Positions 22,242-29,813 of a stretch of 29,848 nt of DNA are shown in pieces (within the stretch, counting starts at the first letter, position 1; each line of letters opens with the position of its first letter). A program made the position numbers and the translations under genes. The notes beneath the pieces are model-generated. The model did no database searches and had not been told where the DNA came from. It saw nothing but the letters and a program-made list of their open reading frames with translations. The stretch lies in IMG/VR virus record IMGVR_UViG_3300022836_000029, positions 1-29,848 of that record, one strand, 5' to 3'. Source of the stretch: a virus.

Positions 22242-22270
22242 TTGACACCAATGCTCAGACAGTGTATACT
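22242..22270 (+). promoter_or_regulatory. consensus sigma-A/sigma-70 promoter
   Basis: TTGACA (22242-22247) and TATACT (22265-22270) are separated by exactly 17 bases and lie in a 78-base non-coding gap. The predicted start is near 22277, leaving a leader of about 35 bases before the ATG at 22312, which has AAAGGGA. It would drive the unknown 98-residue gene and the terminase genes. Confidence 0.75.
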
Positions 22271-22608: not shown

Positions 22609-23119
22609 ACATCTTGACCAAATGAACAAGGTCGTAGGAGAATATCTTAAGGGAGGTGACGCCACAAAGATATCTAAACAGCTAGCAATTCCTAGGGTAA
22701 AAGTTGTAAGTCTAATTAAAGAGTGGCAGATTCTGGCTTCCGACAATGTTGCCATTAGAGCTAGGGCCCAAGAGGCTCTGGCCGTTGCTGACCAACACTA
22801 CGGTAAGCTGATCGGTCTAGCCTACGAGGTTATTGATGAGGCAACGATGACGGCAAACCTTGCGTCTAAGACGTCTGCGATCAAGCTCGTTATGGATATA
22901 GAGTCCAAGAGAATTGAAATGCTTCAAAAAGCTGGTCTGCTGGAAAACAAAGAGCTGGCTGAGGAAATGCTGGAAATTGAACGACGCCAAGAGATACTTA
23001 TCAATATTCTAAAAAATATTGCCTCAGATCATCCAGAGATTAAAGATAAGATTATGGCAAGCCTCTCAGAGGCTTCAAAAAAGCTTGACGAAACGGTAAC
23101 GATAGTTCACCATGTTTGA
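22583..23119 (+). CDS. probable small terminase subunit
   Basis: A 178-residue protein started by TTG at 22583; AGGAGG eight bases upstream makes this start convincing. Residues 26-48 form a helix-turn-helix (DATKISKQLAIPRVKVV), followed by long helices suited to oligomerisation (residues 55-150). DNA recognition domain plus helical oligomer domain, and position directly before the large subunit with an eight-base overlap, match small terminase subunits, which recognise the packaging site and recruit the motor. No single motif proves this; the call depends on architecture and context. Confidence 0.7.
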   Translation: MQNEEQIVEHLDQMNKVVGEYLKGGDATKISKQLAIPRVKVVSLIKEWQILASDNVAIRARAQEALAVADQHYGKLIGLAYEVIDEATMTANLASKTSAIKLVMDIESKRIEMLQKAGLLENKELAEEMLEIERRQEILINILKNIASDHPEIKDKIMASLSEASKKLDETVTIVHHV

Positions 23120-24893
23120 TGAGTTCTTTGATGTATTAGAAGACAGCCCCTTTGCGGAGAAACCTGTAGATGTTCGGACTTTTGTCGAAGGAAAAGATTT
23201 CTTGGGGCAGCCCTCGCTGTCGGCTCCTCAGTACGACATTGTAGAAGGTATGAGCCAGATATACAAGATAGAAGAGTTACAGGAGCTGATGGGGTTTGAG
23301 GAGGGTAGCCAGTACTACAAAAAGTTTACAAAGAACGAGATCATTCTCCAACTTGGCAAGGGTAGTGGAAAAGACTACACCTCCACTGTAGCTGTATGTT
23401 ACATAGTTTATAAACTCTTGTGTCTTAAAGACCCCGCGGTGTATTACGGTAAGCCCTCTGGTGACGCCATTGATATTATCAACATTGCGATTAACGCAAC
23501 ACAGGCAAAGAACGTTTTCTTTAAAGGCTTTAAGACTAAGGTTGAGAGGTCTCCCTGGTTTGCAGGAAAGTATTATTCAAAGATGGACTCTATAGAGTTT
23601 CCCCATTCTGTAACAGTATACTCGGGCCACTCAGAGCGTGAGTCTCACGAGGGGTTGAACCTGTTAGTGGCCATCCTTGATGAGATCTCGGGGTTTGCGG
23701 TAGAGACCGCGACAGGCAACGAGCAGGGGAAGACAGCCGATAATATCTATAAGGCTTTCCGAGGTTCGGTAGACTCCCGATTCCCTGACCTTGGCAAAGT
23801 GGTTCTGCTGTCTTTCCCCCGATACCCAGGAGACTTCATATCTACAAAGTATGAATCGGCTATCATGGAAAAAGAAGTGGTTGAGAGAACTCACAAGTTT
23901 ATCTTAAACGCAGATCTTCCAGAAGACAGCGAGGGCAATACCCTAGAGATTACGTGGGACGAAGACCACATCGTATCGTACAACCTTCCAGGGGTGTACG
24001 CCCTTAAGAGACCAACCTGGGAAATAAACCCAACAAGAAAGATAGAAGACTTCAAGCTAGCGTTCTATACAGACCTGAATGATGCCATGATGCGTTTTGC
24101 TTGCGACCCTAAGTTTTCTTCGGATGCCTTTTTTAAGCAGCACGACAAACTTCGCTCGTCAATGTCAGCCAGGAATCCCTTAGATGAATTTAGAAGGCTA
24201 GAAGAAAGCTTTCATCCAAGACAGGACGTCAGGTATTACGTCCATGCTGACCTCGCCCAAAAGCACGACAAGTGTGCTGTGGCCATTGCTCACGTAGAGA
24301 AGTGGGTGAGCATCCAGGTACTTAAGGACCTTAACCAGGTAGTTCCCGTAGTCGTCGTAGACTTCGTAGCCTGGTGGGAACCAAAAGTTGAAGGTCCCGT
24401 AAACCTATCGGAAGTAAAGCAGTGGATTCAGAACCTTAGAAGGCTGGGCTTTGATCTAGGAATGGTGACATTCGACAGGTGGAACTCCTTTGATATTCAG
24501 AACGAGCTAAAGAAAGTCGGTATCAGAACAGAAACCGTTTCGGTAGCCAAGAAACATTACGAAGATATGGCCATGCTTGTTTACGAAGATCGATTGATAA
24601 TGCCAGGCATAGAGTTGCTGTTCGAGGAGCTCACACAGCTTAAGATTATGAAGAACAATCGAGTCGATCACCCTCGCAAAAGCTCTAAGGACCTCGCTGA
24701 CGCCGTCTGTGGGGCTATCTACGGAGCCATCGTCAACACTCCGAGAGAGGATTTTGGAGATATTGAGATCCATACTTATAAGAGCAGGCCTAAAACAGAA
24801 GTTGCGGATCTACCCGATAACGTGATACAATATAAGACCAAGCCCATTCCAGATGATATACAGGAATACCTTGATAGGGTTTCTGCTCTTTAA
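23112..24893 (+). CDS. terL: large terminase subunit (packaging ATPase/nuclease)
   Basis: A 593-residue DNA-packaging motor. The ATPase half has a Walker A G82-K-G-S-G86-K87-D88 and a Walker B strand VAILDEISG with D190-E191. The nuclease half is an RNase H-like fold with D380 (VHADLAQKHDK), D455 (TFDRWNS) and D530 (KDLADAVCGAIYG). The Walker A ends in Asp where Ser/Thr is usual. The start overlaps the small subunit by eight bases. The gene is more than 13 kb downstream of the tail genes with the replication module in between, whereas terminase genes commonly lie next to the capsid genes. Confidence 0.9.
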   Translation: MFDEFFDVLEDSPFAEKPVDVRTFVEGKDFLGQPSLSAPQYDIVEGMSQIYKIEELQELMGFEEGSQYYKKFTKNEIILQLGKGSGKDYTSTVAVCYIVYKLLCLKDPAVYYGKPSGDAIDIINIAINATQAKNVFFKGFKTKVERSPWFAGKYYSKMDSIEFPHSVTVYSGHSERESHEGLNLLVAILDEISGFAVETATGNEQGKTADNIYKAFRGSVDSRFPDLGKVVLLSFPRYPGDFISTKYESAIMEKEVVERTHKFILNADLPEDSEGNTLEITWDEDHIVSYNLPGVYALKRPTWEINPTRKIEDFKLAFYTDLNDAMMRFACDPKFSSDAFFKQHDKLRSSMSARNPLDEFRRLEESFHPRQDVRYYVHADLAQKHDKCAVAIAHVEKWVSIQVLKDLNQVVPVVVVDFVAWWEPKVEGPVNLSEVKQWIQNLRRLGFDLGMVTFDRWNSFDIQNELKKVGIRTETVSVAKKHYEDMAMLVYEDRLIMPGIELLFEELTQLKIMKNNRVDHPRKSSKDLADAVCGAIYGAIVNTPREDFGDIEIHTYKSRPKTEVADLPDNVIQYKTKPIPDDIQEYLDRVSAL

Positions 24894-24956: not shown

Positions 24957-25356
24957 TTGAAGTTACCCATTGATATTGTTTACTTTTCAAATTATTCAGG
25001 TAACACAAAAAAGTTCGTAGAGAGGCTAAGTGAAAATTCTTACAGGATTCCTATGGACTGTGACGATAGCAATGCTCCTATTTATACTAGGGAGTTTGTT
25101 CTTGTTGTCCCAACTTATGGGGGTGGCTCGGAACGAACAGCAATACCCCGACAAGTACGACATTTCTTAAATGTCAAGGAGAACAGGGCCCTGCTTCGTG
25201 GGGTAGTTGGAACAGGAAACACAAACTTTGGTGAGCACTTTTGCAAGGCCGCCCATTTAATTAGTGCAAAAGCAGGGGTGCCGCTTATTGCAAGGGTAGA
25301 AATATTTGGCACCACAGAAGATATTAATGACGTAACAGAAAGGTTACAACTGAATT

Positions 25357-25364
<8 letters not shown>
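24957..25364 (+). CDS. nrdI: NrdI flavodoxin-like protein
   Basis: A 135-residue flavodoxin that activates the metal cofactor of class Ib ribonucleotide reductase. The TTG at 24957 is used, with GGAGAG seven bases upstream. FMN-binding loops are visible: [13 protein letters not shown] for phosphate, [10 protein letters not shown] for the ring, and [20 protein letters not shown] is the NrdI family signature. It overlaps nrdE by eight bases, giving the usual nrdI-nrdE-nrdF order. No NrdH glutaredoxin is present in the window. Confidence 0.92.
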
Positions 25365-28453
<3,089 letters not shown>

Positions 28454-28462
28454 TGCTATACT
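28454..28462 (+). promoter_or_regulatory. extended -10 promoter candidate (TGCTATACT)
   Basis: Directly after the nrdF stop, TGC precedes TATACT, an extended -10. No -35 box at the right spacing is visible. A start near 28469 would leave a short leader that contains the strong GGAGGAAGG site before the ATG at 28485. The peptidase may thus be transcribed separately from the nrd genes. Confidence 0.45.
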
Positions 28463-28484
28463 TGGTTAAACGGAGGAAGGCTTT

Positions 28485-29228
28485 ATGATTAACAGAACGC
28501 TTGACTGGATCTCTAATCACGACCCTAGGTCTAGAGAGTATCCATTTAAACAAAGGATGGGTAGTTCTCCTGTAGCTGAGGTCCCTACCTTTTGGGAAGA
28601 AGGCATAGTCCTAGATCAAGGCCAGGAAGGCGCCTGCGTTGGCTTTGCATGGACCGGAGAGCTTCTTGCGGAGCCCTCCGCTCCTGCAATTCAGCCAGAA
28701 TTTCATAGTGCGAATATGCTAGCTGTATCTTTCTATAAGTCTGCTCAGAAGATCGATGAGTGGGCTGGAGAAAACTACGAAGGAACCTCCGTTCTTGCTG
28801 GAGCAAAGATCATGAAGTCTCAAGGCTTTATTGGAGAGTACCGATGGTGCTTTGGGATTGAAGCCGTAAAGAATGCAGTCCTTTCAGAGGGCCCAGTTGT
28901 CTTGGGAGTCCCCTGGTTTTCAGGAATGTACGGAACACTGCCTGGAGGATTAGTCATTGTTTCTGGCTCAAAGGTAGGCGGTCACGCGATACTGCTAACT
29001 GGCTACCACCCCAACCTTAAGTTTGGAAATCAGACTCACGAGGTTTTTCGTTGGAGAAATTCTTGGGGAGCTGGGTATGGGACTGGTGGGTCTGGCTGGA
29101 TCAAGTCAAATGATTTAGGGAAGCTTCTCTCTGACGGAGGAGAGGCTTGTGTTCCTATGGATAGAAAAATTCCGGTATTCAAAGACATTAGAGTAAGCGC
29201 CTGGAAAGAATCTGTCTCACCAGCTTGA
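28485..29228 (+). CDS. papain-fold (C1-family) cysteine peptidase-like protein
   Basis: A 247-residue protein with a strong GGAGGAAGG ribosome binding site. The active-site set of papain-like peptidases is present in order: oxyanion Q45 and nucleophile C51 (LDQGQEGACVGFA, with the normal spacing of six), H167 (VGGHAILLTGY), and N192 (RNSWGAGYG), with a Gly-rich GSGWI after it. There is no signal peptide, membrane segment or obvious propeptide, so it would act in the cytoplasm or be packaged. Length equals one mature papain domain. It could process phage or host proteins, or act as an amidase or transferase; substrate unknown. It stands between nrdF and the tRNA array, after its own promoter-like element. 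Confidence 0.85.
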   Translation: MINRTLDWISNHDPRSREYPFKQRMGSSPVAEVPTFWEEGIVLDQGQEGACVGFAWTGELLAEPSAPAIQPEFHSANMLAVSFYKSAQKIDEWAGENYEGTSVLAGAKIMKSQGFIGEYRWCFGIEAVKNAVLSEGPVVLGVPWFSGMYGTLPGGLVIVSGSKVGGHAILLTGYHPNLKFGNQTHEVFRWRNSWGAGYGTGGSGWIKSNDLGKLLSDGGEACVPMDRKIPVFKDIRVSAWKESVSPA

Positions 29229-29253
29229 CATTTAGGAAAAAGTAGGCTATACT
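29225..29253 (+). promoter_or_regulatory. consensus promoter of the tRNA array
   Basis: TTGACA (29225-29230) and TATACT (29248-29253) are 17 bases apart, the same boxes and spacing as at 22242. It overlaps the peptidase stop codon. The predicted start is at 29260 or a base or two beyond, about 34 bases before tRNA-Gln, so it should drive the tRNA array. Confidence 0.75.
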
Positions 29254-29259
29254 AATAAC

Positions 29260-29289
29260 ATGATGAAAAAGCAACAGCAGCCCCTCTAA
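29260..29289 (+). CDS. possible leaderless leader peptide MMKKQQQPL
   Basis: Nine codons starting six bases after the -10 box of the tRNA promoter, so the ATG coincides with the predicted transcript start. The peptide contains three consecutive Gln codons (CAA CAG CAG) and ends five bases before tRNA-Gln(CUG), which reads CAG. CCCC (29281-29284), inside its last codons, can pair with GGGG (29295-29298) in the tRNA acceptor strand. It may be a regulatory leader, but so short an ORF easily arises by chance. Confidence 0.2.
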   Translation: MMKKQQQPL

Positions 29290-29293
29290 CCGA

Positions 29294-29365
29294 TGGGGTG
29301 TAGTGTAAACGGTAGCATCGCTGATTCTGATTCAGCTGGTCTTAGTTCGAGTCTAGGCACCCTAG
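29294..29365 (+). tRNA. tRNA-Gln(CUG)
   Basis: A 72-base cloverleaf. The acceptor TGGGGTG/CACCCTA pairs with one G-U, the D-arm is GTGT/GCAT, the anticodon stem GCTGA/TCAGC is perfect with loop TTCTGAT (anticodon CUG), and the T-arm has a canonical TTCGAGT loop. G73 is followed by CTC, so CCA is not encoded and must be added by the host. Confidence 0.85.
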
Positions 29366-29381
29366 CTCAATAATTAAATAT

Positions 29382-29452
29382 GGAGATATAGTTTAATGGT
29401 AGAATAAGCGCCTTCCAAGCATTTGATGAGAGTTCGATCCTCTCTATCTCCT
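29382..29452 (+). tRNA. tRNA-Gly(UCC)
   Basis: A 71-base cloverleaf. The acceptor GGAGATA/TATCTCC is perfect, the loop CTTCCAA gives anticodon UCC (codon GGA), and the T-arm GAGAG-TTCGATC-CTCTC is perfect. The anticodon stem AGCGC/GCATT has a C-A mismatch and a G-U pair. No encoded CCA. Confidence 0.85.
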
Positions 29453-29476
29453 CGTATTCATAACTAAATACAAATT

Positions 29477-29547
29477 GCCCCTATAGTTTATTAGTAAAAC
29501 GTCTGTTTTGTAATCAGAAAAGGCGGGTGCGTTACCTGCTAGGGGCT
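29477..29547 (+). tRNA. tRNA-Thr(UGU) with atypical T-loop
   Basis: A 71-base cloverleaf. The acceptor GCCCCTA/TAGGGGC is perfect, the D-arm is GTTT/AAAC, and the loop TTTGTAA gives anticodon UGU (codon ACA), with a U-U at the base of its loop. The T-stem GCGGG/CCTGC pairs, but its loop is TGCGTTA rather than the usual TTCRANN. No encoded CCA. The first 19 bases recur at 29830. Confidence 0.8.
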
Positions 29548-29559
29548 CGCAAGACATAA

Positions 29560-29637
29560 CCCATGAGTGATGGAACACACAGGAGGCTGTAACCCTCTTT
29601 CCGCTCGGATAGCTAAGTTCGATTCTTAGGCGTGGGA
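29560..29637 (+). tRNA. tRNA-Tyr(GUA), class II
   Basis: A 78-base cloverleaf with the long variable arm expected for bacterial tRNA-Tyr (TTCCGCTCGGATAG region). The anticodon stem GGAGG/CCTCT carries loop CTGTAAC (anticodon GUA), and the T-arm CTAAG-TTCGATT-CTTAG is perfect. The acceptor CCCATGA/GCGTGGG has one mismatch at its inner end, and the D-arm is poor, so the 5' boundary may be off by one base. A73, no CCA. Confidence 0.75.
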
Positions 29638-29654
29638 CGATAACTAAATAACTA

Positions 29655-29727
29655 GCCTTCGTAGCTCAGTGGATAGAGCAGAAGATTACGAATCTTAAGG
29701 TCGCAAGTTCGAATCTTGCTGGAGGCT
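29655..29727 (+). tRNA. tRNA-Arg(ACG)
   Basis: A 73-base cloverleaf: acceptor GCCTTCG/TGGAGGC with two G-U pairs, D-stem GCTC/GAGC, loop TTACGAA with anticodon ACG, T-arm GCAAG-TTCGAAT-CTTGC. A34 would need deamination to inosine by host TadA. The outer pair of the anticodon stem is a G-A mismatch. No CCA encoded. Confidence 0.87.
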
Positions 29728-29741
29728 CGCAGTAAATATTA

Positions 29742-29813
29742 GCCTTTGTAGCTCAAAGGAAGAGCACCACACTGTCGATGTGGAGGTTGCGGTGTCAGGA
29801 TCCGTCAAGGTCG
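29742..29813 (+). tRNA. tRNA-Asp(GUC) with degenerate T-arm
   Basis: A 72-base cloverleaf. D-stem GCTC/GAGC and anticodon stem CCACA/TGTGG are perfect, and loop CTGTCGA gives anticodon GUC. The acceptor GCCTTTG/CAAGGTC has a C-U mismatch. The T-stem GCGGT/TCCGT is imperfect and its loop GTCAGGA lacks the TTC signature. G73 fits Asp identity. No CCA encoded. It may be a decayed copy or a structurally unusual tRNA. Confidence 0.7.

What the first reader, a model, noticed from the sequence alone, without database searches (positions are those of the whole stretch)
28485..29228. Stand-alone papain-like cysteine peptidase beside phage ribonucleotide reductase
Q45, C51, H167 and N192 sit in canonical papain (C1) order with the usual Q-to-C spacing and an NSWG motif. 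It is one domain without signal peptide or propeptide and lies outside the virion gene cluster, behind its own promoter-like element, so it is unlikely to be a simple head-maturation protease. Papain-fold proteins in pathogens often modify host proteins; a phage version expressed with the nucleotide and tRNA genes could act on host targets. The role is unknown to me.
Basis: partly seen in the sequence, partly recalled or inferred. Interest (0 to 1): 0.6.

Follow-up and report, generated by a model that had tools for sequence, protein, structure and literature searches.

The report
Phage papain-like protease beside tRNA genes
A phage gene between ribonucleotide-reductase and tRNA genes encodes a papain-type cysteine protease of a family already seen in many phages; it probably cuts proteins inside the infected cell, and the unexpected part is that unrelated phages repeatedly keep it next to their tRNA genes.

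Summary
ORF 28485-29228 (247 aa) has Q45, C51, H167 and N192, all invariant in 56 aligned relatives. AlphaFold2 (pLDDT 90) gives a papain fold closest to bacterial xylellain (Z 21.9). dN/dS is about 0.2. Xylellain-type C1A peptidases in tailed phages are already reported (PMC10380794) and form PHROG 16701, so this is a new member of a known kind.

In Streptomyces Loccivirinae the order is terminase-small ORF-peptidase-small ORF-tRNA, without RNR. There is no full promoter before the gene; the strong one (29225-29253) follows it and faces the tRNAs. The conserved N-terminus resembles the cleft-blocking ends of xylellain and cathepsin propeptides, so latency is possible.

Relatives occupy four settings: DNA-metabolism/tRNA regions (this clade), Gordonia lysis cassettes, C-terminal domains of virion-like proteins, and jumbo phages near RNR. 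Adjacency to tRNAs exceeds chance (6 of 12 lineages, 1.0 expected, P about 1e-4).

Best reading: a cytoplasmic, middle-phase protease cutting host proteins (0.45); target unknown. Lysis accessory, virion enzyme and insertion hotspot remain open.

The parts
28485..29228 (+). xylellain-type C1A (papain-fold) cysteine peptidase, 247 aa
28497..28574 (+). conserved N-terminal segment (residues ~5-30, D13 invariant), proposed cleft-blocking latency segment
   Evidence: D13 invariant; model residues 1-30 align with 3ois from residue 31 and with procathepsin K/L propeptides from 66P; inference
28617..28637 (+). oxyanion-hole Q45 and nucleophile C51 (QGQEGAC)
   Evidence: aligned to DQGRIGSC of xylellain
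28983..28985 (+). catalytic H167 (GGHA)
29058..29069 (+). catalytic N192 in NSWG
28472..28476 (+). GGAGG ribosome-binding site
   Evidence: sequence
28454..28462 (+). -10-like TGCTATACT without a recognisable -35; weak
29225..29253 (+). strong sigma70-type promoter TTGACA-17-TATACT, overlapping the peptidase stop codon and facing the tRNA array
29294..29813 (+). start of the tRNA array: Gln(CTG) 29294-29366, Gly(TCC) 29382-29453, Thr(TGT) 29477-29548, Arg(ACG) 29655-29728, and a fifth tRNA 29742-29813
24957..28453 (+). nrdI, nrdE, nrdF (class I ribonucleotide reductase operon) lying between terminase and peptidase in this clade only
23112..24893 (+). terminase large subunit; anchor of the syntenic position shared with Loccivirinae

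Best explanation
The gene encodes an active, stand-alone xylellain-type C1A cysteine endopeptidase. It is made in the host cytoplasm with the nucleotide-metabolism (nrd) genes, next to the tRNA array, in the middle phase of infection. The short N-terminal segment probably lies over the active-site cleft and keeps the enzyme latent until it is removed or displaced. C51 and H167, oriented by N192 with Q45 forming the oxyanion hole, then cleave one or a few host proteins to favour phage replication (host takeover or counter-defence). Shown: catalytic residues, predicted fold, purifying selection, gene position, patchy distribution. Inferred: timing, latency, cytoplasmic action, host substrate. 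Activity and target are untested.
For: Catalytic set invariant. Confident papain fold, best match xylellain 3ois, Z 21.9 over 205 residues at 2.5 A. No signal peptide or transmembrane segment by a crude check. Only 3 Cys, one of them catalytic, which suits the cytoplasm. dN/dS 0.20 and 0.10 against two close homologues. In this branch, neighbours with a known family are mostly replication, recombination or nucleotide genes: primase, helicases, exonucleases, Sak4, RecT, dNMP kinase, RtcB. Patchy distribution: many related Streptomyces phages that share the DnaE are not among the 48 records with the peptidase, as expected for an accessory, host-directed gene; the same argument is made for patchy jumbo-phage peptidases in PMC7824862.
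Against: No activity, expression or target data. Homologues are placed in Gordonia lysis cassettes and fused to virion-like proteins, so the family is not tied to cytoplasmic action. Two loci of the same broad branch lie beside an amidase or endolysin (L054, L067) and one beside an internal virion protein (L077). PADLOC, a defence-gene library, gives no match, which neither supports nor refutes counter-defence.
Confidence: 0.45

Rival explanations
1. Lysis accessory: the peptidase is part of the lysis programme, cutting wall-linked or envelope proteins, or peptide bonds of the wall, together with the endolysins.
For: In Gordonia phages Sixama, GMA2, Aleemily, Lilbeanie, Forza and Morgana the gene lies between endolysin genes and the holin; in Mufasa8 it follows a metallo-endopeptidase and a holin. 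The adjacent small gene (upstream in Sixama and GMA2, downstream in ZL12) matches the C-terminal, presumably wall-binding, part of endolysins. GMA2 Orf38 was already called a putative lysin (PMC4524720). L054 and L067, from the window's own broad branch, lie beside an amidase or endolysin.
Against: In the window and its close relatives no lysis gene is adjacent; neighbours are nrdF and tRNAs. The Gordonia lysis lineage is a separate branch of the tree. No wall-binding domain in the protein.
Confidence: 0.22
2. Virion-associated enzyme: it is packaged or displayed and acts during adsorption or entry.
For: In low-GC (30-35%) phage contigs the same domain is the C-terminal domain of 367-1086 aa proteins with low-complexity linkers and virion-like N-termini; one N-terminus matches a virion structural protein family, E 7e-4. 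L077 lies beside an internal virion protein.
Against: The fusions form one separate clade (support 100/99). The window gene is stand-alone and away from the tail genes. The fold of the N-terminal regions could not be predicted.
Confidence: 0.13
3. Passenger in an insertion hotspot: tRNA arrays and replication regions collect accessory genes, and this gene's position says nothing about its function; it may serve general protein turnover or amino-acid supply.
For: Very different neighbourhoods across the family; HNH endonucleases near several copies; known horizontal acquisition of xylellain-type peptidases by tailed phages (PMC10380794).
Against: Adjacency to tRNAs recurs in six of twelve lineages against 1.0 expected; purifying selection. 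A hotspot would also give recurrence, so this is only weak evidence against.
Confidence: 0.15

Closest known systems
Xylellain-type short bacterial C1A peptidases (3ois from Xylella fastidiosa; Lpg2622 from Legionella)
   Same: Papain fold; DQGxxGAC, GGHA and NSWG blocks; a short N-terminal extension instead of a full propeptide; no W after the catalytic Cys.
   Different: Encoded by a phage without signal peptide; about 20% identity over the aligned fold; the DEWAGENYxGTSV block is characteristic of this branch; regulation and activity untested.
PHROG 16701 'peptidase' (Streptomyces, Gordonia, Mycobacterium and Arthrobacter phages, jumbo XacN1 and RAS14)
   Same: Full-length family match (E 2.1e-51), 26-42% identity to named phage copies, similar size.
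   Different: In the window clade it lies directly behind nrdIEF; the family itself has no assigned function.
Peptidase of Streptomyces Loccivirinae (Wakanda gp80, BillNye)
   Same: 39-42% identity and the same place between terminase and tRNA array.
   Different: No RNR between terminase and peptidase and no RNR large subunit found in the genome; a small ORF on either side.
Gordonia phage lysis-cassette cysteine protease (GMA2 Orf38, Sixama gp109)
   Same: Same family and catalytic residues.
   Different: Lies in the lysis cassette, in a separate branch of the tree.

Membership tests
Peptidase family C1A, xylellain type | Cys-His-Asn catalytic residues and oxyanion-hole Gln in papain order | tested here: met
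   Invariant in 56 sequences; Q, C and H in 28/28 and N in 26/28 of a wider set
Peptidase family C1A, xylellain type | Papain fold | tested here: met
   AF2 pLDDT 90, pTM 0.88; 3ois Z 21.9, 205 residues, 2.5 A; Foldseek E 5.4e-9; predicted, not solved
Peptidase family C1A, xylellain type | Sequence profile match to Pfam PF00112 | tested here: inconclusive
   16.4 bits against a cut-off of 20.7 for this protein; the fused relatives reach the cut-off; a family profile finds 3ois at E 6.6e-17
Peptidase family C1A, xylellain type | Proteolytic activity blocked by E-64 or by a catalytic Cys change | not testable with these tools
   needs bench work
Classical papain/cathepsin enzymes | Trp after the catalytic Cys (CWAF) and full-length propeptide | tested here: not met
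   V52 follows C51; only ~30 residues precede the fold. So xylellain-type, not cathepsin-type
PHROG 16701 | Full-length profile match | tested here: met
   E 2.1e-51, profile positions 5-233 of 234
Phage endolysin | Position in a lysis cassette or a wall-binding domain | tested here: not met
   Neighbours are nrdF and tRNAs; single domain
Prohead (head-maturation) protease | Position between portal and capsid genes; known prohead protease fold | tested here: not met
   Papain fold and a location between nrdF and tRNAs

The most novel reading that the evidence does not exclude
The protease is a functional partner of phage tRNA arrays: it removes a host protein that attacks or regulates tRNAs (for example a tRNA-cleaving defence protein or its partner) while the phage tRNAs replace what is lost. 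This would explain why unrelated phages repeatedly keep the gene inside or beside tRNA arrays, and once near RtcB (L074).
Probability: 0.12. Interest if true: 0.75.

Novelty: new member of a known kind. Interest (0 to 1): 0.36.

Why it matters
Phages carrying papain-type proteases are known, but none of this family has an established function. The recurrent placement next to tRNA arrays, the lysis-cassette lineage and the virion-fusion lineage together give concrete, testable alternatives for what a phage papain does.

Tried and rejected
Own promoter for the peptidase: no -35 found; the strong promoter is downstream. tmRNA called by ARAGORN at 29053-29453: its 'tag' AWKESVSPA is the peptidase C-terminus in frame and its end is tRNA-Gly, and Rfam finds no tmRNA there. 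RNR partnership: RNR large subunit not found in Loccivirinae, Gordonia, Mycobacterium, Shaeky, Sycamore and GX15bay records that carry the peptidase. NCBIfam and PADLOC: no match. Conserved partner ORF: the small upstream gene is homologous among Gordonia phages only and resembles an endolysin C-terminus. Fold of the N-terminal region of the virion-like fusion proteins: pLDDT 29, unusable. The broad alignment A1 had no stretch usable for a collection scan.

Full report
Observation. ORF 28485-29228 (+, 247 aa) is real, with a good ribosome-binding site. The protein matches PHROG 16701 'peptidase' over its whole length (E 2.1e-51) and Pfam Peptidase_C1 below the curated cut-off. A profile of the family finds xylellain (3ois) at E 6.6e-17, aligning the DQG..C, GGHA and NSWG blocks. 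Q, C and H are invariant in 28 of 28 diverse homologues and N in 26; in 56 sequences all four are invariant. Against the 93%-identical homologue dN/dS is 0.20, against a 99% one 0.10.

Fold. AlphaFold2 with 56 sequences gives pLDDT 90 and pTM 0.88. The best solved match is xylellain (Z 21.9, 205 residues, 2.5 A), followed by procathepsins and cathepsins. Model residues 1-30 align with xylellain from residue 31 and with procathepsin K/L propeptides from about 66P. These segments cross the active-site cleft in those enzymes (own knowledge; for xylellain see Leite et al. 2013, cited in PMC10380794). A short latency segment is therefore an inference. A ribonucleotide-regulated activity of xylellain is recalled from memory and was not tested here.

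Family and tree. 48 phage records carry homologues, and at least 201 IMG/VR stretches do. Bacterial copies occur in Actinomycetota genomes. That xylellain-type C1A peptidases were horizontally acquired by Myoviridae and Siphoviridae is already reported (PMC10380794). The tree separates (a) Gordonia, Mycobacterium, Arthrobacter and Streptomyces Shaeky/Sycamore/ZL12 copies, (b) virion-like fusions plus the jumbo-phage branch, and (c) a large stand-alone branch with the window, Loccivirinae and the host copies.

Neighbourhoods. The window clade (L008-L010, L036-L040, L055; 55-99% identity) has nrdF directly before the peptidase, and tRNAs 5-66 bp after it. Loccivirinae have terminase-small ORF-peptidase-small ORF-tRNA without RNR. 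In other members of branch (c), neighbours with a family are mostly primase, helicase, exonuclease, annealing protein, dNMP kinase or RtcB, with an amidase or endolysin at L054 and L067 and an internal virion protein at L077. Gordonia copies lie in lysis cassettes, behind a gene resembling an endolysin C-terminus. In low-GC contigs the domain ends 367-1086 aa proteins of virion-like make-up. Jumbo phages XacN1 and RAS14 have it about 2-3 kb from nrdAB.

tRNA adjacency. Using tRNA positions over whole records and asking whether a random 700-bp interval falls within 400 bp of a tRNA, 6 of 12 lineages are adjacent against 1.0 expected (P about 1e-4); with complete reference phages only, 3 of 5 against 0.44 (P about 0.005). 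Caveats: lineages were collapsed by hand, some contigs are fragments that end near the array, the listed tRNAs were cut at about 150 rows per search, and the sample is the best-scoring 80 loci plus named phages. Nineteen of 24 contigs without adjacent tRNAs have no tRNA at all at this sensitivity, but many of these are fragments. The excess may reflect a functional link or an insertion hotspot; the data do not decide.

Promoter claim. The 31-bp gap before the gene holds a -10-like TGCTATACT but no -35. The only strong promoter (11 of 12 matches) overlaps the peptidase stop codon and faces the tRNAs. The gene is therefore most simply read as transcribed with nrdF.

Function. For this clade a cytoplasmic, middle-phase protease acting on host protein is favoured (0.45): no export signal, few Cys, DNA-metabolism and tRNA neighbours, patchy presence among related Streptomyces phages. 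PMC7824862 argues likewise that patchy phage peptidases are probably host-directed. The lysis and virion lineages show that the domain has been used otherwise, so these remain rivals. No target can be named.

Noticed in passing
L014:5728-6486: Homologue in which the block normally following the EWAGENY region (PVVIGINW...GGHCICVAS) lies before the DQGSEGACVGF motif: a transposed segment, possibly a rearrangement or a misassembly.
   Followed up: partly
L009:85-2409: Terminase large subunit of a close relative (about 98% identical) carries an intein-like LAGLIDADG insert (Pfam LAGLIDADG_3 E 1.3e-12, intein splicing E 3.5e-4); no such match in the window terminase.
   Followed up: partly
window 29053-29453: ARAGORN reports a tmRNA with tag AWKESVSPA that is the peptidase C-terminus read in frame joined to tRNA-Gly; an artefact.
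   Followed up: yes
window 29742-29813: A fifth tRNA found by Rfam (40.9 bits) that ARAGORN missed; the array continues beyond the window end in relatives.
   Followed up: partly
window 22242-22270: Second TTGACA-17-TATACT promoter-like site; two such sites in the window against 0.05 expected.
   Followed up: no
L003:5591-5962, L016:4585-4956, L023:5501-5899: Separate small genes matching the C-terminal part of endolysins, directly upstream of the peptidase in Sixama and GMA2 and directly downstream of it in ZL12: a lysin split into several genes.
   Followed up: partly
L051 contig (G027): 45 tRNA matches in a 38.7-kb phage contig.
   Followed up: no
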